From: a bacterium | GTDB lineage: Bacteria; Elusimicrobiota; Elusimicrobia; UBA1565; UBA9628 | Assembly (NCBI GenBank): GCA_021799485.1 | Contig: JAJZAK010000003.1 | Coordinates: 1 to 64,000, forward strand | DNA length: 64,000 bases | Reading direction: 5' to 3' | Part shown: in pieces, positions 795 through 42,366 of the stretch | How positions within the stretch are numbered: position 1 is the first letter of the stretch | How the letters are laid out: every line of letters begins with the position of its first letter | Translations under genes and position numbers: made by a program | The notes under the pieces: generated by a model | Database searches by the model: none | Told to the model about the DNA's origin: nothing | What the model saw: only the letters and a program-made list of their open reading frames with translations

Positions 795-858
795 CCTCGC
801 GTTCGGCAAGCCAGTCCGCCACCGCGGGGGACAGCGGCATGTCCACGAGGAACTTCAA
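784..858 (-). pseudogene. Truncated DUF5615/PIN-like toxin remnant
   Basis: Directly after the DUF433 antitoxin, a TTG start at 856-858 (overlapping its TGA) opens a frame reading KFLVDMPLSPAVADWLAERE and then stopping after 24 residues. FLVDMPLSP is the typical N-terminus of DUF5615 PIN-like toxins, which are normally around 110-120 residues and encoded just behind DUF433 antitoxins. The frame ends at a TGA inside palindromic element copy 1. Beyond the element (below 731) no continuation of the toxin is seen. The catalytic core is therefore missing and the gene is broken. Confidence 0.7.
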
Positions 859-1079
859 TGGCTGAATTCGACCGTCTCTTCCTCGGCCAGGATCGCGGCA
901 AAACGAAGGGCTTCGTCGATGTCCTCGGAGGCCAGGTAGGGATAATTCTTGAGGATGGAATCCTTCGTCTCCCCGGAAGCAAGAAGGCCCAGGAGCCGGG
1001 AAACGGGAAAGCGCAGGTCCCTGATGCAGGGCTTGCCCGAGCAGACGGCGGGATCGACGGTGATGCGCGGGAGGTTCAT
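855..1079 (-). CDS. DUF433 family antitoxin
   Basis: A 74-residue protein of the DUF433 (VapB-like, winged-helix) family. Visible hallmarks are the N-terminal ITVDPAVCSGKPCIRDLRFPV, the segment LLGLLASGETKDSILKNYPYL and the C-terminal DIDEALRFAAILAEEE. Family members repress their own operon and neutralise a DUF5615 PIN-like toxin encoded immediately downstream. Here only the first 24 codons of that toxin survive, so this is probably an orphan antitoxin. A good promoter lies directly upstream with almost no leader. Confidence 0.85.
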   Translation of the reverse strand: MNLPRITVDPAVCSGKPCIRDLRFPVSRLLGLLASGETKDSILKNYPYLASEDIDEALRFAAILAEEETVEFSH

Positions 1080-1088
1080 GACAAATGC

Positions 1089-1117
1089 AGTGTAACAGTT
1101 GTTCCGGTTATCCGCAA
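1089..1117 (-). promoter_or_regulatory. Promoter of the DUF433 gene, near-leaderless
   Basis: On the minus strand TTGCGG (1112-1117) and TACACT (1089-1094) are separated by exactly 17 bases. The ATG follows only nine bases after the -10 box, so transcription should start at or just before the start codon. No Shine-Dalgarno sequence fits in that space. Confidence 0.5.
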
Positions 1118-1986: not shown

Positions 1987-4786
1987 GGGGGATGCGGCGG
2001 CGCCAGCGACTCCCCCGCCGCCGGGCCTTGCCCGATTCTTTTTTCTCGGCGCGATCCTTTTCTCGGCGTCCCTGGGAGGCGCCGCGGAGGGGGCCTCGGA
2101 CGCGGATGACGGCTATCCCCTGCCGTCTCCCCCCAAGGCCGCGAGCGAGTCGCGGCTGCTGCGCTTCTCGGCGGGGCATGCCGACTATACGGAACGCCGC
2201 GAGATCGTCCATATGAGCAGCGCGGCCCGCGTCGACACGGGCGATCTGGCCGTCAAGTCGGACGAGCTTTACTTCAGCCTTCCGCGCTCCTACTTTTTCT
2301 CGCCCGATTTCATCATCATGGAGGGCTCGTCGCATACCTTCGCGGGGAGCCCCGGCCTCTTCAGGCTTCGCGGCGAGGACTGGAGCTCCGGCTGGGCCTG
2401 GAACGCCCGGGCTTCCTACGGACATTGGAACGTCGCCGCGTCGAGCGCCGAGTGGGCGGACGACGGGAGCGCGGTCTTCCGCCAAGCCGATATCACGAGC
2501 TGCCCCCTCTATCCCGACCCGGACTACCGCGTTCACTCAAGCTACGTCAAAATAACGCCGGCGGGCCGGCTTTGGGCCTTCAACGACGTGCTCTACCTGG
2601 GCGAGCGCCCGGTCTTCTATAGCCCCGTCCTCACGACCCGGCTGCCGCGCGACACGACGAGCCAGATCGGATCGGGTCTTGGCACCCAGGTCAACGTGGG
2701 CCAGATGGCCCGCAACGGCTACTTCGTTCGGAGCTGGACGCCCTTGACGCTCGGGCGGCTGCGCGCGAGGGCGCTCGTCGACTATTACCAGCTGGGAGGC
2801 CCCGCCGGCGGGCTTATTTTGGGCCGCAACGTGAAATCCCTCCAGAACTCGGCCCTCTTCTACGATGTCCAGGACCCCATCCTCAACCGCAATCGCTGGG
2901 TCGCCTTCGGCAACTATTCCGAGCGGCTGTCAAAGAGCCTGTCCTTCCAGGGACGGCTTCAGGACCAGTCGGATGCCAACGTCGGCAACGACTACCTGGC
3001 GAACACTCCCTACGACATGCCCAACCAGCTCATCAACAGCGCGGGACTCACCGGGCATTGGAGCAACGTCACCGCGGTCGCGGCCTACAGCCGGACGGAT
3101 CAGGCTCAGGCGCCGTTCAACTCGATCAACGACGCCGCGCCGCAGACGTTCGTCAAGGTCGCGGAATCGGAGTCCTTGAGCGCCCAGAGCGCGCCCGTGA
3201 GCCTAAGCTCCCATTCCTGGGTCTTCATGTATTCAGGCCAGGCGGCCAATGCCTATGCCCTTGGACAGGGGTATCTATCGAAAACGGCGCAGGGCTCCGT
3301 CAACGCGACCCGGACCTGGAGGCCGACTCGGAACATCTCCTTCGCCTCCAAGGTAGCCTACCAGGCGAACTATTCGAACGTGGAGGTCCTGCCGGGGGAT
3401 GTAAGCCCGTCCTCCAACGTGATCATGGGGCTTGCGACCGCGACGAACGACCTGCGCTGGCGCTCGCCGCTTGGAAGCTGGGACTTCAAGCACGCGATCG
3501 CCGTCAACCAGCGGCCCAACGGCTTGGCGCCCGCCAGCGGATCCCCGGACTACGGCATCCAGTCCAACCAAGCGACGATCGAGGACATGCTTCAGCCGAC
3601 GAGCCTCACGATGATACGCTTCCAGTCGGGCTACAATCTCCAGCAGACCCGCGGCCAGCCGATCGGCTTTCGCGACCGGGTCTCGCCCATCACGGCCGAC
3701 GCGGACTATTTCCCTGGATTTCACTCGATTGTCACCCTGCACGAGGTCTATCTTCTCGACGGCGGCAACCAGTCGACGATCGCGAGCGCGCAGTGGGGGG
3801 ACCGCAAGAAATCCTTTTTGAACGTCTCGGCGGGCTACTTGAACCCCGGGCTCTCGCCCGGGGCGCTGCAGACCTACAACGCGACCGTCCAGGCGGGCTG
3901 GCGGACGCCGGGAAGCCCCTGGCAGGTCACCGGGACGCTGGGCGCCCAGACCCAAACGGCGGCGGCTCTTCGCGATGGGACGCCGCCACAGTTGTTCGAC
4001 AAGGAAATCTCCATCTCAAGGGATTGGCATGACTTCCACGCGAACGTCTCCATCATCGAGCGGACGGGCAACGTCCGTTCGATCGGCGGCAACCTTCAAC
4101 TCGTCTTCCCGCCGGGGCCCAAGACCACCGCCGAGCGCAACGCCTATTGGGAGGGCCGCTGGGCGCCGGCCTCCTGGGCGGCGCGGGCGTCGTCGAGTTC
4201 GGCGGTTTCGCCTCTCGCGTCGGGTCCTTCGGCCCCAGCCAAGCCTCCGGCGGCCCGGGCGAAGAAGAAAGGCCTTCTGGCCGGATTTTTCTGCGCCCTC
4301 GGGATGGGGAAGGGATGCGCCGCCAAGCGTCCGCCCAAGGGCTGGAAGGCGCCCCCTCTCTATCTGCGTCCTCTCGTCAACAAAACGCAGCAGCCGGGGC
4401 TCGACTTGTCCTTCAACCAGCCGCTCTTGGACGAGATCATGCGGGACGGACGCCTCCACCTGGCGCCCGAGGGCCAAGCCGCCTACCAAATCCTCTTCAC
4501 GCTCACGCGCTACGATCTGCAGCCGCTCCAGACCTCGGCGGGGCTCGCCCCCAGCACTTACATGCTTAAGATATCCGGCGACCTTGCGCTCGACGATGGA
4601 AACGGGAAGAAGGTATGGAGCAAGGACAATGTCTTCGGGCTTCTTGTCTATACCGCGGACACGCTCTCGGGCGGGATCACGGAGCGGCAGGCCCGGGCGC
4701 AGATTTGGGATTTCCTGGCGCGCCGCGTCGTCGCGGAGACGATCAGCGGCCTCCTCGATTTAAACTCCCATGGCAAAAACCGGTGA
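1937..4786 (+). CDS. lptD: LptD-LptE fusion: LPS transport barrel with fused plug domain
   Basis: LptD inserts lipopolysaccharide into the outer leaflet; LptE is normally a separate lipoprotein plugging its barrel. Residues ~32-55 are a signal-like hydrophobic segment. Residues ~70-300 hold the periplasmic OstA/LptD part, with the family region ADITSCPLYPDPDYRVHSSY. Strands then continue to about residue 724, ending GGNLQLVF, like a barrel C-terminal signal. After a Pro/Ala/Ser linker comes KKKGLLAGFFCALGMGKGC, resembling a decayed lipoprotein signal, then an LptE-like domain from ~805 (LYLRPLVNKTQQPGLD, IMRDGRLHL, ALDDGNGKKVWSKDN). No stop separates the parts. ATG 1937 is the only ATG/GTG/TTG start noted before the signal segment, so the N-terminus is uncertain. 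The stop codon lies inside palindromic element copy 2. Confidence 0.8.
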   Translation: MTFSSITPTAGSSSIFEGDAAAPATPPPPGLARFFFLGAILFSASLGGAAEGASDADDGYPLPSPPKAASESRLLRFSAGHADYTERREIVHMSSAARVDTGDLAVKSDELYFSLPRSYFFSPDFIIMEGSSHTFAGSPGLFRLRGEDWSSGWAWNARASYGHWNVAASSAEWADDGSAVFRQADITSCPLYPDPDYRVHSSYVKITPAGRLWAFNDVLYLGERPVFYSPVLTTRLPRDTTSQIGSGLGTQVNVGQMARNGYFVRSWTPLTLGRLRARALVDYYQLGGPAGGLILGRNVKSLQNSALFYDVQDPILNRNRWVAFGNYSERLSKSLSFQGRLQDQSDANVGNDYLANTPYDMPNQLINSAGLTGHWSNVTAVAAYSRTDQAQAPFNSINDAAPQTFVKVAESESLSAQSAPVSLSSHSWVFMYSGQAANAYALGQGYLSKTAQGSVNATRTWRPTRNISFASKVAYQANYSNVEVLPGDVSPSSNVIMGLATATNDLRWRSPLGSWDFKHAIAVNQRPNGLAPASGSPDYGIQSNQATIEDMLQPTSLTMIRFQSGYNLQQTRGQPIGFRDRVSPITADADYFPGFHSIVTLHEVYLLDGGNQSTIASAQWGDRKKSFLNVSAGYLNPGLSPGALQTYNATVQAGWRTPGSPWQVTGTLGAQTQTAAALRDGTPPQLFDKEISISRDWHDFHANVSIIERTGNVRSIGGNLQLVFPPGPKTTAERNAYWEGRWAPASWAARASSSSAVSPLASGPSAPAKPPAARAKKKGLLAGFFCALGMGKGCAAKRPPKGWKAPPLYLRPLVNKTQQPGLDLSFNQPLLDEIMRDGRLHLAPEGQAAYQILFTLTRYDLQPLQTSAGLAPSTYMLKISGDLALDDGNGKKVWSKDNVFGLLVYTADTLSGGITERQARAQIWDFLARRVVAETISGLLDLNSHGKNR

Positions 4787-4847
4787 CACCATACGGATTT
4801 CCCCTGATGCCGAAACGATCATAATCCGTATGGTGTCACCGGTTTTT
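4775..4847 (+). repeat. Dispersed palindromic element, copy 2 (perfect 25-bp arms)
   Basis: The arms 4775-4799 and 4823-4847 are perfect inverted repeats of 25 bases around a 23-base centre (4800-4822). The core 4782-4840 matches copy 1 in inverse orientation, including interior words GGATTTCCC, ATGCCGAAACG and TAATC. The left arm supplies the TGA (4784-4786) ending the lptD-lptE frame. The right arm ends in a short T-run, so as RNA it could also act as a terminator. Copy 3 is at 13348-13402. Confidence 0.85.
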
Positions 4848-4872
4848 CAGATGGGTGGCTAATCAAAAGAAG

Positions 4873-5022: not shown

Positions 5023-5108
5023 TTGCGTTCGCGGAGGTCGCGAGAAAATACGCCGGCGCCCTTGGGGGCGGGAGATGAGATCTGTATCGATAGTCGGCAA
5101 ATATCCGG

Positions 5109-5125
5109 TATAATAGCCATATATG
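5109..5125 (+). promoter_or_regulatory. Consensus -10 box, leaderless start of ATPase gene
   Basis: A perfect TATAAT (5109-5114) sits eight bases before the ATG at 5123, placing the transcription start at the start codon. The -35 region (about 5086-5091) is weak. There is no Shine-Dalgarno sequence, so the message should be leaderless. Confidence 0.55.
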
Positions 5126-6271
5126 TTTCAGAGGCTCCTTGCCAAGCCTTCCCGATCCATCCTGCTCGTCGGCCCGCGCGGCACGGGGAAGTCGACATGG
5201 ATCGGGTCGCATGTTCGGGGGGCGCTTTTCTACGATCTCCTCGATTCCCGCCAGTCCCTGCGTCTCAACAGGGACCCCGGCATCCTGCACCAGGAGGCCG
5301 CCGCGCTTCCCCGGGGCTCGTGGGTCGTCATCGACGAGGTTCAAAAGGCCCCCGCGCTTCTCAACGAGGTGCATCGCCTCATCGAGGAGAGGAAGCTGAA
5401 ATTCGTCCTCTCGGGATCGAGCGCCAGGCGGCTGCGCCGCGGCGGGACGAATCTCCTCGCCGGCCGGGCGATCCTGACCCCCTTTTTCCCCCTGGTATCC
5501 CGGGAAGTCGGCTTTAAGTTCCGCGGTCTCGGGCGCCTCCGCTACGGGATGCTCCCCGAGGCGTTCCTAGCGGACGATCCCGAGCCCTATCTGGAAACCT
5601 ATGCCCGCGTCTATCTCCAGGAGGAGATCAAGGCCGAGGCCCTGACGCGGAATATCGGAGCCTTCGCGCGCTTCCTTGAAGTGGCGGCCCGGCAGAACGG
5701 CCAGGTGACGAACGTCTCCAACATCGCCCGGGACGCCCAAGTCGCCCGGCAGACGGTGGAGGGCTATTTCCAGATCCTCGACGATACGCTGATCGGAGCG
5801 TGGCTGCCCGCCTGGAAGCTCAAGCGCGCCACCAAGCAGGTCCGCCACCCGAAGTTTTATTTCTTTGATCCGGGCGTCTGCCGGGCGCTCTCGGAACGCC
5901 TTCCCTATCCCCCGACGGACGAGGAATCGGGATTCTTGCTGGAGACATGGATCTTGGCCGAGCTGCGCGCCTACCTTTCCTATTCGCGTCTGGGCTATCC
6001 GCCCCATTACTGGAGCTCTCATGACGGGGTCGAAGCCGACTTCCTGGTCGAGACCGCGAGGGGCTTCGTCGCCTTGGAGGTCAAATGGGGGACGCGCTGG
6101 CGCGGGGCGTTCAATCGGGGCCTTCTGCGCCTGCGCGATGAGCTGGGTCGCGGGAGGGTGCGCTGCTTGGGCGTCTACACCGGGGAGCGGGAGGCGGATT
6201 TCAACGGCGTGCGCGTGCTGCCCTGGCTCGAATTTCTCAAGAGGCTCTGGGGCGGCGAGATCATTCGTTAG
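5123..6271 (+). CDS. AAA-type ATPase with DUF4143 C-terminal domain
   Basis: A 382-residue P-loop ATPase of the widespread ATPase-plus-DUF4143 family, whose cellular role is unsettled. Visible are Walker A GPRGTGKS (about 18-25), Walker B WVVIDEVQKAP, a sensor-like VLSGSSARRLRR and the N-terminal AAA core. A helical/winged-helix middle (NVSNIARDAQVARQTVEGYF) follows, then a C-terminal nuclease-like fold with EADFLVETARGFVALEVKW, reminiscent of PD-(D/E)XK enzymes. It is a stand-alone gene with its own -10 box. A second member is encoded at 39271-40482, though the two are not close copies. Confidence 0.85.
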   Translation: MFQRLLAKPSRSILLVGPRGTGKSTWIGSHVRGALFYDLLDSRQSLRLNRDPGILHQEAAALPRGSWVVIDEVQKAPALLNEVHRLIEERKLKFVLSGSSARRLRRGGTNLLAGRAILTPFFPLVSREVGFKFRGLGRLRYGMLPEAFLADDPEPYLETYARVYLQEEIKAEALTRNIGAFARFLEVAARQNGQVTNVSNIARDAQVARQTVEGYFQILDDTLIGAWLPAWKLKRATKQVRHPKFYFFDPGVCRALSERLPYPPTDEESGFLLETWILAELRAYLSYSRLGYPPHYWSSHDGVEADFLVETARGFVALEVKWGTRWRGAFNRGLLRLRDELGRGRVRCLGVYTGEREADFNGVRVLPWLEFLKRLWGGEIIR

Positions 6272-13293: not shown

Positions 13294-13299
13294 ATTCTA
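13294..13299 (-). promoter_or_regulatory. Possible -10 box of the pnt operon
   Basis: TAGAAT on the minus strand, 14 bases before the pntAA ATG at 13279. No clear -35 box is present. Palindromic element copy 3 lies just upstream. Confidence 0.3.
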
Positions 13300-15712: not shown

Positions 15713-16654
15713 TCAAGGCTGGAAGTTCAGGGAGGCGCCGAGTCCGACGAAATTCTGGTCCGGCTCCCCGATCTGGGTGTAGCGCTCGTAGTAGGCGCGG
15801 AAGCTCAGCATCATGAGGTTGACGTTGCAGCCGGCCGTGTAGGCGCCGGAGGGCCGCTCCTGGGCGGCCGCGCTTAGAAACGTCGTGTGAGCGTAGTCGA
15901 GGTAGGGCGTGACGTAGGGGATCATCCCCATCGAGAGCTTGAAGTTGGCCGAGAAGTCGGGGAAGCCTTGGATCTCCTGGTTGACGCCGGGGAGGATTTC
16001 GACGGCCAGGGGTTGGAGCCGCGGATCGGCGAGGTTGCCGCTATAGACGGACTTCGTGAGATCGACGCTGAGCAGGTTGTCGAAAAAGGCGGCCGCGGCG
16101 TCGGCGCGGAAGTTCGTCTGGCCGATGGGCTCGCTTCCGGTCGATTGGGGGCCGAAGCCGCTGACGTCCGCGCTGTGGTCCCAGTAGGAGGCGCCCGCGC
16201 CGACGAGGAACCCCGAGAGTCCGGCGGGAGGGGGCGTCCAGCCCCAGGGCTGCCAGGAGGCGCTGGCGTCGTGGAACTGCTGGAGGCGCCGGACCTTCCC
16301 GGAGCCGGGGGAGAAGCCCAGGACTCCATGGATGCCGAAAAAGCGGTTGCTGTAGTGGTCCCCGTCGCTTTGCGGGGTCGCTCCGCCATGGATGCTGAGG
16401 CCGAAATTCGCCGTGTCGTAGGCCGCGCGGATGGCGTAGGTTTTGTATCCGACGTCGCCGGTCAGGTCGGAGTGATAGTCGTAGTAGCTGGGCGTCACGT
16501 GGAAGGCGCCGCCGAAGTCCACGGAGGCGTCGGTGCCTTCGTAGGAATGGCTTCCCATCGTTTGGCTGATGTCGGGGTTGATGTAGAAGGCGCGCGCCGG
16601 GGCGGCCTCCAAGATCATCGCGATGATGAGGACGGCGAAATATCGTGGCTTCAT
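15713..16654 (-). CDS. Predicted outer-membrane beta-barrel protein
   Basis: About 313 residues; no named family recognised. A signal peptide (MKPRYFAVLIIAMILEAAPARA, cleavage after ARA) precedes a mature part with alternating aromatic/polar strands (VTPSYYDYHSDLTGDVGYKT, YAIRAAYDTANFGLSIHGG), ending VGLGASLNFQP, which fits a porin-like barrel. The ATG at 16654 gives a normal signal peptide; 16663 and 16702 are longer alternatives. It is the first gene of the run leading to ugd and uxs and is divergent from the dehydrogenase at 16726, so it may help export or anchor a polysaccharide. Confidence 0.6.
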   Translation of the reverse strand: MKPRYFAVLIIAMILEAAPARAFYINPDISQTMGSHSYEGTDASVDFGGAFHVTPSYYDYHSDLTGDVGYKTYAIRAAYDTANFGLSIHGGATPQSDGDHYSNRFFGIHGVLGFSPGSGKVRRLQQFHDASASWQPWGWTPPPAGLSGFLVGAGASYWDHSADVSGFGPQSTGSEPIGQTNFRADAAAAFFDNLLSVDLTKSVYSGNLADPRLQPLAVEILPGVNQEIQGFPDFSANFKLSMGMIPYVTPYLDYAHTTFLSAAAQERPSGAYTAGCNVNLMMLSFRAYYERYTQIGEPDQNFVGLGASLNFQP

Positions 16655-16710
16655 AAAAAACATTTCTAAAGAATCATACATTATCGCAAGACGGTCGATC
16701 ACTCAAAAGG

Positions 16711-16716
16711 TATGAT
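16711..16716 (+). promoter_or_regulatory. -10 box of the wecC-like gene
   Basis: TATGAT lies nine bases before the ATG at 16726, so the leader should be only a few bases long, although an AGGA is squeezed in at 16717-16720. The -35 region is poor. The same 70-base gap must also drive the divergent barrel gene (a TATGAT-like box on the minus strand near 16674). Confidence 0.4.
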
Positions 16717-16725
16717 AGGAACTCC

Positions 16726-18021
16726 ATGGCGCTTCTCGAACGCATCGAGGGATCGAAGGCCGCGATCGGGATCGTGGGCCTGGGCTACGTGGGGCTTCCC
16801 CTCGCGGCGGCCTTCGCCGAGAGGGGTTTCTCCGTGACGGCCTTCGAGTCGGATGCCGCGCGCGCCGCGGCGCTGCGGGCGGGGAGGTCCTATGTACCCG
16901 ACGTTTCCTCGGAACGATTGAAGCCGCTCGTGAGGGCCGGCGTCTTGCGCGTCGCGAAGGGGCCGGCCGATTTCGCCGCGCAGGATGTCGTCGTCTTCTG
17001 CGTCCAGACGCCTTGGCGCAAGACCCAGGAGCCGGACATGGGCCCTCTCGTGTCGGCGGCGACCGCGGCGGCGCGCCATCTCAAGCGCGGCTCGCTCGTG
17101 ATCGTCGAGAGCACGACATGGCCCGGAGCGACCGAGGAGATTTTAAGGCCCGTCCTGGAGGCGTCGGGCTTGAGGGCCGGAAGGGATTTCCATCTCGCCT
17201 TCTCCCCCGAGAGAATCGACCCGGGAAACCCCCGCTACGGGCTTGCGAACACCCCGAAGGTCGTGGGCGGCCTGGATGTCGCCGCGACGAAGCAGGCCGC
17301 CGCCCTTTACTCCAAGATCGTCGAACGCGTCGTCCCGGTGTCCTCCGCCCGGGCGGCGGAGCTCGTGAAGCTCCTTGAGAACTCCTTCCGCGCGGTCAAT
17401 ATCGCGCTCGTGAGCGAAATCGCCCGGATTTGCCGGGCGCTCCGGCTCGACGTCTGGGAGGTCATCGCGGCCGCCGCGACGAAGCCCTTCGGCTTCATGC
17501 CCTTCTACCCCGGCCCCGGCATCGGCGGCCACTGCATCCCGAAGGACCCCAAACTCCTCGCTTGGAAGATGAAGAGCCTCAATTTCGAGGCGCGCATGGT
17601 CGAGCTCGCCTCCGCGATCAACGCCGCGATGCCGCAGTACGCCGTGGAACGATTAACCGAAGCCTTGAACGACTCTCAAAAACCGCTTAAAGGAAGCCGC
17701 GTTTTGATCCTGGGCGTGGCGTACAAGCCCGGGGTTCCGGACACCCGGGAGTCCCCGGCGATCGACGTCATGACGCTTCTTTGGCGCGCGGGCGCCAAGG
17801 TTTTCTACCACGACCCCTTCGTGCCGGCGGTCGAGGCCGGAGGGCGCCGATTAAAGAGCGTCGGACTGACGGCCGCCGTCCTTTCCCGCGCGGACGCGGT
17901 CGCGATACTCACGGCGCACCCGGACGTCGACTATGAGCTCGTTTTCAAGCGCGCCAAGATTCTTTTCGACGCCCGCAACGCTCTCCCCAAGCGCAAGCGC
18001 CCGGGCCTCTACCGCCTGTGA
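16726..18021 (+). CDS. UDP-N-acetylhexosamine 6-dehydrogenase (WecC/WbpA type)
   Basis: A 431-residue nucleotide-sugar dehydrogenase making a UDP-HexNAc uronate. It has GIVGLGYVGLPLAAAFAERG (NAD site), VESTTWPGATEE, the subfamily motif FSPERIDPGNP, catalytic Cys270 in GIGGHCIPKDP and VLILGVAYKPGVPDTRESPA. The FSPERIDPGN and GGHCIPxDP words separate it from the UDP-glucose type encoded at 14358-15692. Whether the substrate is UDP-GlcNAc or UDP-ManNAc cannot be told. The histidine kinase gene follows after 25 bases. Confidence 0.88.
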   Translation: MALLERIEGSKAAIGIVGLGYVGLPLAAAFAERGFSVTAFESDAARAAALRAGRSYVPDVSSERLKPLVRAGVLRVAKGPADFAAQDVVVFCVQTPWRKTQEPDMGPLVSAATAAARHLKRGSLVIVESTTWPGATEEILRPVLEASGLRAGRDFHLAFSPERIDPGNPRYGLANTPKVVGGLDVAATKQAAALYSKIVERVVPVSSARAAELVKLLENSFRAVNIALVSEIARICRALRLDVWEVIAAAATKPFGFMPFYPGPGIGGHCIPKDPKLLAWKMKSLNFEARMVELASAINAAMPQYAVERLTEALNDSQKPLKGSRVLILGVAYKPGVPDTRESPAIDVMTLLWRAGAKVFYHDPFVPAVEAGGRRLKSVGLTAAVLSRADAVAILTAHPDVDYELVFKRAKILFDARNALPKRKRPGLYRL

Positions 18022-22372: not shown

Positions 22373-22398
22373 ATCGTCGAACGCTAAAAACATAATAT
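22369..22398 (+). promoter_or_regulatory. Promoter of the nuo operon
   Basis: TTGAAT (22369-22374) and TAATAT (22393-22398) are 18 bases apart. The GTG start of nuoJ follows seven bases after the -10 box with no ribosome site, so the first gene is probably translated from a leaderless end. Confidence 0.5.
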
Positions 22399-22405
22399 TG
22401 AAAAC

Positions 22406-22900
22406 GTGCTGAGCGCTCCTCAGGCGGCCCTTGTTGTTGCCGGAGCCCTCGCCTGCTTCTTCGCGCTCAAGATGCTCTTCGAGCGCACCCTCTACGCGGC
22501 CGCGATTTGGTTTATGGCCGTGCTCATGCAAGGGGCGGCCTTCTTTTTCTTCTCCGGCGCGCCCCTGCTGGCCTTCCTTCAGATCATGATCTACGCGGGC
22601 GCCGTCATGTCCCTTGTCGTCATCACGATCATGGCGGCGCCGAGCGCCGCGGCGAAGCGCCTTGGCGACATGTCCCTCGGCAAGCCCCTGGCTTTCCTCG
22701 TCATCCTCATCCCCGCCGCGGAGCTGGCGCTCTTCATCGGGTCCGGAGGCTTTTCAAACGGCGCCCTGGGAGGGGCGCTGGCCGCGGAGAACTCCTTGGG
22801 CGCGGTTCTTTTCCAGCGCTACGCGGCCGCGACCGAGCTTGTGACGGCGCTTCTCTTCCTCGCCGGCCTCGGCGTTTTGCAGGCGGAGCCCAAGCAGTGA
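22406..22900 (+). CDS. nuoJ: NADH dehydrogenase subunit J
   Basis: A 164-residue membrane subunit of complex I. The conserved segment FLQIMIYAGAVMSLVVITIMA lies in the third helix, and about five helices are visible. It starts with GTG directly behind the promoter and is the first gene of the operon, an unusual position since J normally sits in the second half. NuoK overlaps its stop codon (GTGA). Confidence 0.93.
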   Translation: MLSAPQAALVVAGALACFFALKMLFERTLYAAAIWFMAVLMQGAAFFFFSGAPLLAFLQIMIYAGAVMSLVVITIMAAPSAAAKRLGDMSLGKPLAFLVILIPAAELALFIGSGGFSNGALGGALAAENSLGAVLFQRYAAATELVTALLFLAGLGVLQAEPKQ

Positions 22901-35603: not shown

Positions 35604-35632
35604 TTGACATGGGCGAAGGCGACTGTTACACT
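35604..35632 (+). promoter_or_regulatory. Strong promoter of the radical SAM-cdaA-DHH operon
   Basis: Perfect TTGACA (35604-35609) and TACACT (35627-35632) with a 17-base spacer. The leader to ATG 35653 is about 13 bases and has no Shine-Dalgarno sequence. Confidence 0.7.
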
Positions 35633-35652: not shown

Positions 35653-37248
35653 ATGCCCGCCGCCGTCCGACACGACGAACTCGAAACGATCAGCGTCAAG
35701 CCGACCTTGATCGGCCGCGAGCCTTATCTCCCCTCCGAACCGCCCCCCAAGACCCGCATCCTGCTCCTCGAGCCCTTCTATCCGGCGGAGGCGAAGTGGG
35801 GAAGCCTCAAGACCGAGCAGGGCTTCCTGCCGCCGATCGGCCTCATCTCGATGTATTCGTGGCTGCGCTGGAAGGGCTTCGACGTGGACTTCCAGGACAC
35901 GCAGTTCGGCCAGTTCACCGAGGCCTCCCTGCGGGAGTATCTGCGGCGCGGACGCTACGAGATCGTCGGCATCCCGGTGTTCACGCCGACCGCGGACTAC
36001 TGCTTCTGGACGGCGAGACTCTGCCGGGAGGTCCTGCCGGACTGCAAGATCGTCTTCGGCAACATCCACGCGAGCTCGACGCCCAAGCTGACGATGGAGC
36101 AATGCCCGGAGTGCGACTTCATCGTCCGCCATGAGGGGGAATACACTTTCGAAGAGCTCGTCCGCGCTCTCGCCCGCGGCGCCTCGCCCGACTTCGCCGC
36201 CATCCGCGGCCTCGTCTGGCGCCGCGGCGGCGAGATCGTCGTCAACCAGGATCGCCCCCTCATCGGCGACTTGGACACCCTCCCTCCGGGATTTTATTCC
36301 GACCTGGATCTCGCCGGCTACGTCCCGCACGTCACCCAGTACAGCGTGCTCCCGAACTACCCCCTCATCACCCAGCGCGGCTGCCCCTATCCCTGCAGCT
36401 ATTGCGAGGCCTCCAACATCCTGGGCAAGAAGCAAAGAGTCTACAGCCCCGCCCGCGTCGTCGAGGAGCTCAAGATTCTCAAGGAGAAAAAGGGCGCGCG
36501 CGGGATCTATTTCCAGGACTCGACTTTCACGATGAACCGCAAATACACGGTCGAGCTCCTAAGCCTCATGATCAAGGAGAAGCTGGGCCTCCTTTGGACC
36601 TGCAACACGCGCACCGACCGGGTCGATCCCGAGCTCCTCGCCATGATGCGCGAGGCGGGCTGCCGGACGATTTTCTACGGCATCGAGTCGGGCAACCCGG
36701 AGTCCCTGAAGGTCATCCACAAGCAGTGCACGGTCGAGCAGCAGACCCGCGGCGCGATGTGGACCCACGAGGCCGGCATCCGGATGCTGTGCAACTACAT
36801 CATCTGCCTTCCGGGGGAGGATGAAAAGATGGTGGAAAACACCATCCGATACGCGCGCAGCCTCAAGAGCCAGATGGCGCTTTTCTATCTTCCCGTGCCC
36901 TTTCCCGGATCCGCCCTTTACGAGGAGTGCCGCAAGGATGGAGGCCTGATCCGTCCCGACGCCCGTTGGAGCGACTACCTCTCGATCGACTTCGACAATC
37001 CCGTCTACGTCAATCCGAAGATCGGGAAGGAACGCATGAAGTATTGGTATCGGCGGGCCTTCCGCGATTATTATTTGACTCCGGGGGTGTGGTGGGCGAA
37101 CCTGCGCCAAGTCCGCTCCGCGCATGACGCGAGGCGCCTCCTGCGCGGGGGGCGGGCGCTTTCGATTCTGCTTGGATCGGGGATCCGGAGCCTCCTCAAG
37201 GGGTTCAACCGCGGCTACCATGGACAGGCGGCCCCGATCATCGACTAG
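35653..37248 (+). CDS. B12-binding-type radical SAM enzyme
   Basis: A 531-residue member of the cobalamin/radical SAM family (BchE/PhpK-like architecture). Residues ~33-165 fit the N-terminal B12-binding-like Rossmann domain (starting RILLLEPFYP), without an obvious DxHxxG motif. The radical SAM domain has the cluster ligands Cys244, Cys248 and Cys251 (CPYPCSYC), then FYGIESGNPESLK. The reaction cannot be predicted; relatives methylate or rearrange carbon skeletons, often in lipid or cofactor synthesis. It is first in an operon; its TAG overlaps the GTG of cdaA by one base. Confidence 0.85.
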   Translation: MPAAVRHDELETISVKPTLIGREPYLPSEPPPKTRILLLEPFYPAEAKWGSLKTEQGFLPPIGLISMYSWLRWKGFDVDFQDTQFGQFTEASLREYLRRGRYEIVGIPVFTPTADYCFWTARLCREVLPDCKIVFGNIHASSTPKLTMEQCPECDFIVRHEGEYTFEELVRALARGASPDFAAIRGLVWRRGGEIVVNQDRPLIGDLDTLPPGFYSDLDLAGYVPHVTQYSVLPNYPLITQRGCPYPCSYCEASNILGKKQRVYSPARVVEELKILKEKKGARGIYFQDSTFTMNRKYTVELLSLMIKEKLGLLWTCNTRTDRVDPELLAMMREAGCRTIFYGIESGNPESLKVIHKQCTVEQQTRGAMWTHEAGIRMLCNYIICLPGEDEKMVENTIRYARSLKSQMALFYLPVPFPGSALYEECRKDGGLIRPDARWSDYLSIDFDNPVYVNPKIGKERMKYWYRRAFRDYYLTPGVWWANLRQVRSAHDARRLLRGGRALSILLGSGIRSLLKGFNRGYHGQAAPIID

Positions 37249-39211: not shown

Positions 39212-39255
39212 TTCCTGAAAAAAAGTCTTGACTTTTTTTCAGGAACCAATAAACT
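39212..39255 (+). promoter_or_regulatory. Promoter within a perfect 16-bp-arm palindrome (likely operator)
   Basis: Arms 39212-39227 and 39230-39245 are perfect inverted repeats around two bases, each arm carrying a run of seven A or T. The -35 box TTGACT (39228-39233) starts in the centre, and the -10 box TAAACT (39250-39255) follows after 16 bases just outside. A dimer bound here would block RNA polymerase, so this looks like an operator for the ATPase gene. Leader about eight bases. Confidence 0.65.
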
Positions 39256-39270: not shown

Positions 39271-40482
39271 ATGCGTTATCTATCGGGCGAGATCGAGCGC
39301 CTGCTGCGCGAGGAGCGCAAGATGGCCTTCATCGCCGGACCGCGGCAGGTGGGGAAGACGACGCTCGCCCGCCGCCTCCTGCGAGAGGCCGCTCAGGGCG
39401 GCAACTATTTCAACTGGGACGTGGAGAGCCACCGCCGGGCGATTCTTGCCCGCCCGGAGGGCTTCTGGGCCGTCGCGCCCGCCGGGCGACGGACGCGCGT
39501 GGCCCTCGACGAAATCCACAAATACCCTCGATGGAAGCGCTTCCTCAAAGGGATCTATGACGCCGCCGGACGGGAGACCGAGATCATCGTCACCGGAAGC
39601 GGCCGCTTGGACGTCTACCAGCGCGGCGGCGACTCCCTCTTCGGCCGCTACGGTCTTTACCGCCTCCATCCCTTCACGCTGGGGGAGCTTTTGTCTCCGG
39701 ATGGCGCCGGCGTCCGCGAGCCCGAGGTCCTCTGGCGCGAGGCGATCGAGCCCGCCGCGCCGGGGACCGCTCGGGCCTTGGCCGATCTGGAGCGCTTCAC
39801 CGGCTTCCCGGAGCCGCTTTTCGCGGCGAGCGAGAGCCGGCTGCGCCGCTGGAGGCGCGCCCGGCGCCATTTAATTTTGCGCGAGGACCTGCGGGACCTC
39901 ACTCGCATCCGCGACATCGGCCTCGTGGAGTCCCTCGCGGCGCTCCTGCCCGAGCGAGTGGGCTCGCCCCTTTCCCTCAACGCGCTCAGCGAGGACCTGG
40001 GAGTCGCCTTCGGGACCGTCCGGGCGTGGATGGAAACCTTGGCCCGTCTCTATTACGTCTTCGAAATCCGTCCCTACGCGGGCCGCCTGGCGCGGGCGTT
40101 GCGGCGGGAGGCCAAGATTTATTTGTTCGACTATTCCGAGGTTGCCGATCCGGGAGCGCGCTTTGAGAACATGGTCGCCGTCCATCTGCGCAAGCTCGTG
40201 GACGCCTGGAACGACTGGGGCGTGGGCGATTTCGAGATCCATTACGTGCGGGATAAGGAGAAGCGCGAGGCCGACTTCCTGATCGCCGAGTCGCGCCGCC
40301 CATTCCTGCTGATCGAGACCAAGCTCTCGGCCCGGGAGCCCTCCTCCTCTCTCCGCTATTTCCACGAGCGCCTCAGGCCCGCTCACGCGGCTCTCCTTTC
40401 CCGCGAGGAGCCCGCGCGCGGGCCGTCGTCGATCGGGGGCATTCGCGCCATCGGTGCGGCGCGGTTCTTGTCGCGCATCTGA
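39271..40482 (+). CDS. AAA-type ATPase with DUF4143 domain, second member
   Basis: A 403-residue ATPase: Walker A GPRQVGKTT (23-31), Walker B VALDEIHKYPRWKR, sensor-like IVTGSGRLDVYQRGGDSLFG, a winged-helix middle (LSEDLGVAFGTVRAWMETL) and a nuclease-like C-terminus with KREADFLIAES...LLIETKLS. It has the same architecture as the protein at 5123-6271 but little close identity. It is monocistronic behind the palindromic promoter, which suggests autoregulation; the helix-turn-helix-like middle could be the DNA-binding part (inference). Confidence 0.85.
   Translation: MRYLSGEIERLLREERKMAFIAGPRQVGKTTLARRLLREAAQGGNYFNWDVESHRRAILARPEGFWAVAPAGRRTRVALDEIHKYPRWKRFLKGIYDAAGRETEIIVTGSGRLDVYQRGGDSLFGRYGLYRLHPFTLGELLSPDGAGVREPEVLWREAIEPAAPGTARALADLERFTGFPEPLFAASESRLRRWRRARRHLILREDLRDLTRIRDIGLVESLAALLPERVGSPLSLNALSEDLGVAFGTVRAWMETLARLYYVFEIRPYAGRLARALRREAKIYLFDYSEVADPGARFENMVAVHLRKLVDAWNDWGVGDFEIHYVRDKEKREADFLIAESRRPFLLIETKLSAREPSSSLRYFHERLRPAHAALLSREEPARGPSSIGGIRAIGAARFLSRI

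Positions 40483-40836: not shown

Positions 40837-42366
<1,530 letters not shown>

What the first reader, a model, noticed from the sequence alone, without database searches (positions are those of the whole stretch)
5109..5125. Repeated pattern of promoters abutting start codons: probable leaderless mRNAs
-10 boxes lie 7-9 bases before the start codon of the DUF433 gene (1089-1094), the ATPase gene (5109-5114), the WecC-type gene (16711-16716) and nuoJ (22393-22398, GTG start). The ATPase at 39271 and the radical SAM gene have very short leaders. Internal operon genes often do have Shine-Dalgarno sites. Leaderless initiation may be common in this organism.
Basis: partly seen in the sequence, partly recalled or inferred. 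Interest (0 to 1): 0.5.

Follow-up and report, generated by a model that had tools for sequence, protein, structure and literature searches.

The report
Promoters abutting start codons (leaderless genes)
In this uncultured Elusimicrobiota bacterium and most of its order, many genes have the promoter's -10 box 6-10 bases before the start codon, so their mRNAs should start almost at the first codon without a ribosome-binding leader; this is a known bacterial strategy that I did not find described for this phylum.

Summary
The pattern is not chance. In 1.07 Mb of the same genome (46%), 14% of genes that begin a transcription unit carry a -10 hexamer at -16..-11, against 3.8% in column-shuffled controls. 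The sharpest peak is at exactly -12, where a transcript would start on the first base of the start codon. Internal operon genes lack it. The same script finds the peak in Deinococcus deserti but not in E. coli. Shine-Dalgarno motifs are nearly absent from these genes (2/55 versus 109/329) although the 16S anti-SD is intact. The architecture is conserved: 15 of 19 nuoJ and 14 of 20 wecC orthologues have it. Across 34 relatives, TATAAT-N(6-10)-ATG occurs 2375 times against 290 for the reversed pattern, and all 34 prefer that spacing to 16-20. Other Elusimicrobiota classes mostly show little excess. Best explanation: sigma-70-type promoters giving mRNAs with 0-4-nt leaders, alongside SD-led and coupled initiation. 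Transcript ends are inferred; I had no TSS data. New member of a known kind.

The parts
1089..1094 (-). -10 box TACACT, 9 nt before the ATG (1079) of the DUF433 gene 855-1079; predicted leader 3 nt
855..1079 (-). DUF433 gene, 74 aa
5109..5114 (+). -10 box TATAAT, 8 nt before ATG 5123; -35-like TCGATA at 5087 with 16-nt spacer; predicted leader 2 nt
   Evidence: TATAAT-7-ATG in the 60%-identical homologue L146
5123..6271 (+). AAA_14/DUF4143 ATPase gene
   Evidence: box also present in both congeners
15713..16663 (-). Gene divergent from wecC, 316 aa, no Pfam match
16711..16716 (+). -10 box TATGAT, 9 nt before ATG 16726; predicted leader 3 nt
   Evidence: box at -18..-11 in 14 of 20 orthologues
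16726..18021 (+). WecC-type UDP-sugar dehydrogenase gene
22393..22398 (+). -10 box TAATAT, 7 nt before GTG 22406; TTGAAT 18 nt upstream; predicted leader 1 nt
   Evidence: box at -18..-11 in 15 of 19 orthologues
22406..22900 (+). nuoJ, first gene of a nuo run, GTG start
35604..35632 (+). TTGACA-17-TACACT promoter of the radical SAM gene (ATG 35653); predicted leader 14 nt, no SD: short-leadered, not leaderless
39228..39255 (+). TTGACT-16-TAAACT promoter of the second AAA_14/DUF4143 ATPase gene (ATG 39271); predicted leader 9 nt, no SD: short-leadered, not leaderless
13294..13299 (-). TAGAAT, 14 nt before the ATG (13279) of an alanine dehydrogenase-type gene; predicted leader 8 nt
40837..42365 (+). 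16S rRNA gene with intact anti-SD (CCTCCTTTC) at its 3' end

Best explanation
These are ordinary sigma-70-type promoters placed so that transcription begins at, or 0-4 nt upstream of, the start codon. RNA polymerase recognises the -10 hexamer (TAtaaT), with an A/T-rich stretch just upstream and a weak -35 at about 17 nt, and starts about 6-8 nt downstream of the hexamer. The mRNA therefore has no room for an SD and must be started from its 5'-terminal AUG/GUG (70S- or initiator-tRNA-led initiation). Downstream cistrons use SD sequences or 4-nt-overlap coupling on the same ribosomes. Shown: box positions, enrichment, restriction to first genes, SD depletion, conservation and spacing preference. 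Inferred: the actual 5' ends, the sigma factor, and the ribosomal mechanism. At least about 10% of the first genes of transcription units in this genome are affected (excess over shuffles); the mixture model puts it near 23%.
For: Peak of -10 hexamers at -12 in first genes, z 10.6, absent in E. coli, present in D. deserti with the same script. SD in 2/55 against 109/329, p 7e-7. Best -35 match at 16-18 nt; divergent gaps 70 against 154 nt, p 5e-4. nuoJ box conserved at fixed distance in 15/19 orthologues with diverged sequence. TATAAT-N(6-10)-ATG 2375 against 290 reversed in 34 relatives; excess larger than at 16-20 nt in all 34.
Against: No transcript ends or N-termini measured. Starts are predicted. 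The distribution in this genome is broad (-16 to -12), so many cases may have 1-4-nt leaders rather than none, and TATAAT at 16-20 nt is as frequent as at 6-10 nt in this genome (34 against 35). The congener G072 has a 22-nt spacer at wecC.
Confidence: 0.88

Rival explanations
1. The start codons are misplaced: translation really begins further downstream, so these promoters have normal leaders.
For: Starts come from a simple gene caller, and some families show alternative in-frame starts nearby, for example L247 and L221.
Against: tblastn alignments of wecC, nuoJ and ATPase homologues reach residues 1-9 in most relatives. A misplaced start would blur the peak, not fix it at -12, and the positive control peaks at the same place.
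Confidence: 0.05
2. The boxes are not promoters but A/T-rich, unstructured or S1-binding sites that help ribosomes on leadered mRNAs transcribed from promoters further upstream.
For: Nakagawa et al. 2017 (PMC5397173) note that A/T bias around -20..-10 could be S1 sites.
Against: Ribosome sites should also precede internal operon genes, but those show little (11/412 against 47/384). The motif is TATAAT with position-specific letters, not just A/T, has a -35 preference at 16-18 nt, and survives column shuffling and pattern reversal.
Confidence: 0.04
3. Chance: A/T-rich intergenic DNA with hexamers that happen to lie near start codons.
Against: Column shuffles that keep the composition of every position give 12.5 against 47 observed; the reversed-pattern control is 8-fold lower for spacings 6-10 across 34 genomes; nuoJ boxes are conserved at about 50% protein identity.
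Confidence: 0.02

Closest known systems
Bacterial 'TA-led' leaderless genes (Zheng et al. 2011, BMC Genomics, PMC3160421)
   Same: TAnnnT with its first T about 12 nt before the start codon, no SD, mixed with SD-led genes in one genome.
   Different: That survey names Acidobacteria, Actinobacteria, Aquificae, Bacteroidetes/Chlorobi, Chloroflexi, Deinococcus-Thermus, Firmicutes, Proteobacteria and Spirochaetes, not Elusimicrobiota. Here the spacing is broader (6-10 nt) and the hexamer closer to TATAAT despite 63% GC.
ORF-adjacent -10 motif of Deinococcota (Zhong et al. 2025, PMC12340547)
   Same: -10 motif a few bp before the ORF, weak or absent -35, SD lacking; the D. deserti plasmid run with my script peaks at the same -12.
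   Different: Deinococcus was tested by mutation and reporter assays; here there is only sequence evidence. In D. deserti the peak is narrower (mixture-model share at -12 of 0.33 against 0.15).
Leaderless first genes of Actinobacteria and mycobacteria
   Same: Mixture of leaderless first genes and SD-led genes in one high-GC genome.
   Different: Different phylum; no stand-alone CarD found: the only PF02559 hit lies in an open frame of 1086 residues, TRCF/Mfd-like.
GeneMarkS-2 class of bacterial genomes with leaderless transcription (Lomsadze et al. 2018, known through PMC9581028)
   Same: Promoter -10 signal at gene starts used together with SD sites.
   Different: The original paper and its genome list were not held, so whether it already lists an Elusimicrobiota genome was not checked.

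Membership tests
Bacterial leaderless (TA-led) genes | -10 hexamer with first T about 12 nt before the start codon, above shuffled background | tested here: met
   47 against 12.5, peak of 19 at -12; in relatives
Bacterial leaderless (TA-led) genes | No Shine-Dalgarno in front of these genes | tested here: met
   2/55 against 109/329
Bacterial leaderless (TA-led) genes | Confined to the first gene of a transcription unit | tested here: met
   47/384 first genes against 11/412 internal genes
Bacterial leaderless (TA-led) genes | Measured transcript 5' end at or within a few nt of the start codon | not testable with these tools
   No RNA data; needs dRNA-seq
Bacterial leaderless (TA-led) genes | Translation from a 5'-terminal start codon | not testable with these tools
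   Needs a reporter assay or N-terminal proteomics
[quoted passage not shown]
   Spacer 6-10 nt preferred in 34 of 34 relatives over 16-20; nearly equal in this genome itself (35 and 34)
Deinococcota ORF-adjacent -10 motif | Member of the Deinococcota lineage | tested here: not met
   RpoB places the genome in Elusimicrobiota
Mycobacterial-type leaderless promoters | CarD present to stabilise weak promoters | tested here: not met
   only PF02559 hit lies in an open frame of 1086 residues (TRCF-like); genome is 90% complete

The most novel reading that the evidence does not exclude
A lineage-specific shift within one phylum: in the order containing this genome, the promoter-abutting, SD-less start is the preferred architecture for genes with a consensus -10 (excess at 6-10 nt 3.3 times that at 16-20 nt), while several sister classes show little or none. 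Elusimicrobiota would then offer a within-phylum system for how leaderless initiation is gained and lost next to an intact anti-SD.
Probability: 0.55. Interest if true: 0.5.

Novelty: new member of a known kind. Interest (0 to 1): 0.42.

Why it matters
Leaderless initiation is well documented in Actinobacteria and Deinococcota and patchily elsewhere. Finding it conserved across an order of Elusimicrobiota, with an intact anti-SD and SD-led operon cistrons, widens its range and gives a phylum in which gain and loss can be traced. It also warns that start-codon predictions relying on ribosome-binding sites may be wrong for these genomes, and it predicts testable transcript ends for core genes such as nuoJ.

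Tried and rejected
CarD as a co-factor was rejected: only a TRCF-type hit. The extended -10 (TGn) was rejected: 16% joint occurrence, no more than expected from the single-base frequencies. A higher GTG share among these genes was not significant (p 0.11). EM on internal genes gave no -10 motif. The gene-based test on relatives G044 and G065 was inconclusive with small samples, so pattern counts were used instead. Literature searches found no report of leaderless genes in Elusimicrobiota, but the GeneMarkS-2 paper and its genome list were not held.

Full report
OBSERVATION. The four boxes are exactly where stated: TACACT (1094-1089, minus), TATAAT (5109-5114), TATGAT (16711-16716) and TAATAT (22393-22398), separated from the start codon by 9, 8, 9 and 7 nt. 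If the first hexamer base is taken as -12, transcripts would start 3, 2, 3 and 1 nt before the start codon. The two 'very short leader' genes are also as described: the ATPase at 39271 has TTGACT-16-TAAACT with a predicted 9-nt leader, and the radical SAM gene at 35653 has TTGACA-17-TACACT with a predicted 14-nt leader; neither has an SD. Pfam confirms DUF433, AAA_14/DUF4143 (both ATPases), the UDP-sugar dehydrogenase, NuoJ and the radical SAM protein. A further case is the gene divergent from wecC (TATGAT-9-ATG, minus strand, start 16663), so that 62-bp gap holds two back-to-back promoters of this type.

WHERE IT COMES FROM. The window opens contig 12 of a 2.31 Mb, 61-contig genome estimated 90% complete. 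Its RpoB is about 70% identical to that of named Elusimicrobia bacteria, so the organism belongs to Elusimicrobiota. Its one detected 16S gene ends ...GGATCACCTCCTTTCG, an intact anti-SD.

GENOME-WIDE TEST. I wrote a gene caller and applied it to 1.07 Mb of the genome (946 genes). First genes were defined as divergent with a gap of at least 20 nt, or same-strand with a gap of at least 60 nt. Starts were picked without reference to -10 boxes. Among 384 first genes a -10 hexamer (TAnnnT with at least one of the central TAA) begins at -15..-11 in 47 cases, against 12.5 +/- 3.2 when each column is shuffled among genes; the count at exactly -12 is 19. Internal genes give 11 in 412. The same script on a Deinococcus deserti plasmid gives 17 against 5.7 with 10 at -12, and on 250 kb of E. 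coli K-12 it gives 6 against 5.4 with none at -12. Widened to -16..-11, 14.3% of first genes (bootstrap 11.2-17.7%) carry the box against 3.8% in shuffles. A mixture model that also lets starts move converges on TATAAT and assigns 23% of first genes to this class, compared with 22% for the D. deserti plasmid and 4% for E. coli; shuffled input gives 7-17% but no TATAAT consensus and almost nothing at -12. I therefore take about 10% as a lower bound and about 23% as a rough central estimate.

INDEPENDENT SIGNS. SD motifs occur in 2 of 55 of these genes versus 109 of 329 other first genes (p 7e-7; background 12%), and in 42% of internal genes. Divergent intergenic regions are half as long when the gene is of this class (median 70 versus 154 nt, p 5e-4). 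The best -35 match lies at 16-18 nt (at least 4 of 6 matches in 15 of 55, versus 5 at a control distance), and the 5 bases just upstream of the -10 are A/T-rich; an extended TGn is not enriched. Internal genes overlap the previous gene by 4 nt in 138 of 412 cases, fitting coupled initiation within operons.

CONSERVATION. Upstream regions of orthologues in relatives were scored. For nuoJ, 15 of 19 (own genome included) have a -10 hexamer at -18..-11, against 0.6 per equal window elsewhere; the sequences differ (TAGAAT, TATAAT, TAAGAT, TAAAAT) while the distance stays. For wecC it is 14 of 20 against 2.5. The 60%-identical ATPase homologue in another family has TATAAT-7-ATG, and a homologue in a more distant genome has TTGACA-17-TAATAT-6-ATG. 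The arrangement is not frozen: the congener G072 has a 22-nt spacer with an AGGA at wecC (L219).

RELATIVES, WITHOUT GENE CALLS. TATAAT-N6-ATG occurs 778 times in 34 genomes (this one, its genus, family, order and one of the class), against 61 for the reversed pattern (summed). TATAAT-N(6-10)-ATG: 2375 against 290; TATAAT-N(16-20)-ATG: 924 against 284. In all 34 genomes the excess is larger at 6-10, by 3.3-fold overall. In this genome itself the two are nearly equal (35 and 34, each against 7), so it uses both modes. In relative G084, 48 of 100 listed matches have spacers 6-10 and only one has 11. Across the phylum (summed), other families of the same class give ratios from 1.4 to 12, and other classes mostly 0.8-1.9 (two single-genome families reach 3.2-3.4), so the trait varies within the phylum.

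MECHANISM. The simplest reading is a sigma-70-type promoter whose start point coincides with the start codon or lies up to 4 nt before it, followed by leaderless initiation as described for Deinococcota and Actinobacteria. Shown: positions, statistics, conservation. Inferred: transcript ends, the sigma factor involved, and how the ribosome engages. No stand-alone CarD was found, so dependence on it, as in mycobacteria (general knowledge), is unlikely.

KNOWN OR NEW. Zheng et al. 2011 (PMC3160421) define such genes by TAnnnT about 12 nt upstream and find them in 207 of 953 bacterial genomes; Zhong et al. 2025 (PMC12340547) tested the Deinococcus case by experiment. I found no paper reporting it for Elusimicrobiota, though the GeneMarkS-2 genome list could not be checked. 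It is a new member of a known kind.

LIMITS.

Noticed in passing
window 4760-4862; also 771-787: A long inverted repeat (25 perfect pairs of AAAAACCGGTGACACCATACGGATT around a 23-nt loop) is built from a short dispersed repeat, AATCCGTATGGTGTCAC, found 7 times in the genome and 3 times in this window. It looks like a REP/REPIN-type element or a bidirectional terminator.
   Followed up: partly
window 39212-39245; L123 16132-16166: Two AAA_14/DUF4143-type ATPase genes have perfect 16-nt inverted repeats over their promoters (TTCCTGAAAAAAAGTC/GACTTTTTTTCAGGAA; CATGCGGTTATTTTAC/GTAAAATAACCGCATG, the latter spanning the -10 box and the start codon), suggesting repressor operators.
   Followed up: partly
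window 5123-6271 and 39271-40482: AAA_14/DUF4143 ATPases are multi-copy here (8 matches to the first one in this genome, up to 19 in a relative), which looks like a mobile or expanding family.
   Followed up: no
window 16664-16725; L119 17076-17125: Back-to-back divergent gene pairs only 62 and 50 bp apart in which both genes have a -10 box abutting the start codon, so two promoters overlap in one short gap.
   Followed up: partly
L219 (G072), upstream of wecC: Within the genus the wecC promoter differs by 13 nt in spacer length (9 nt here, 22 nt with AGGA in G072), an apparent switch between near-leaderless and leadered forms.
   Followed up: no
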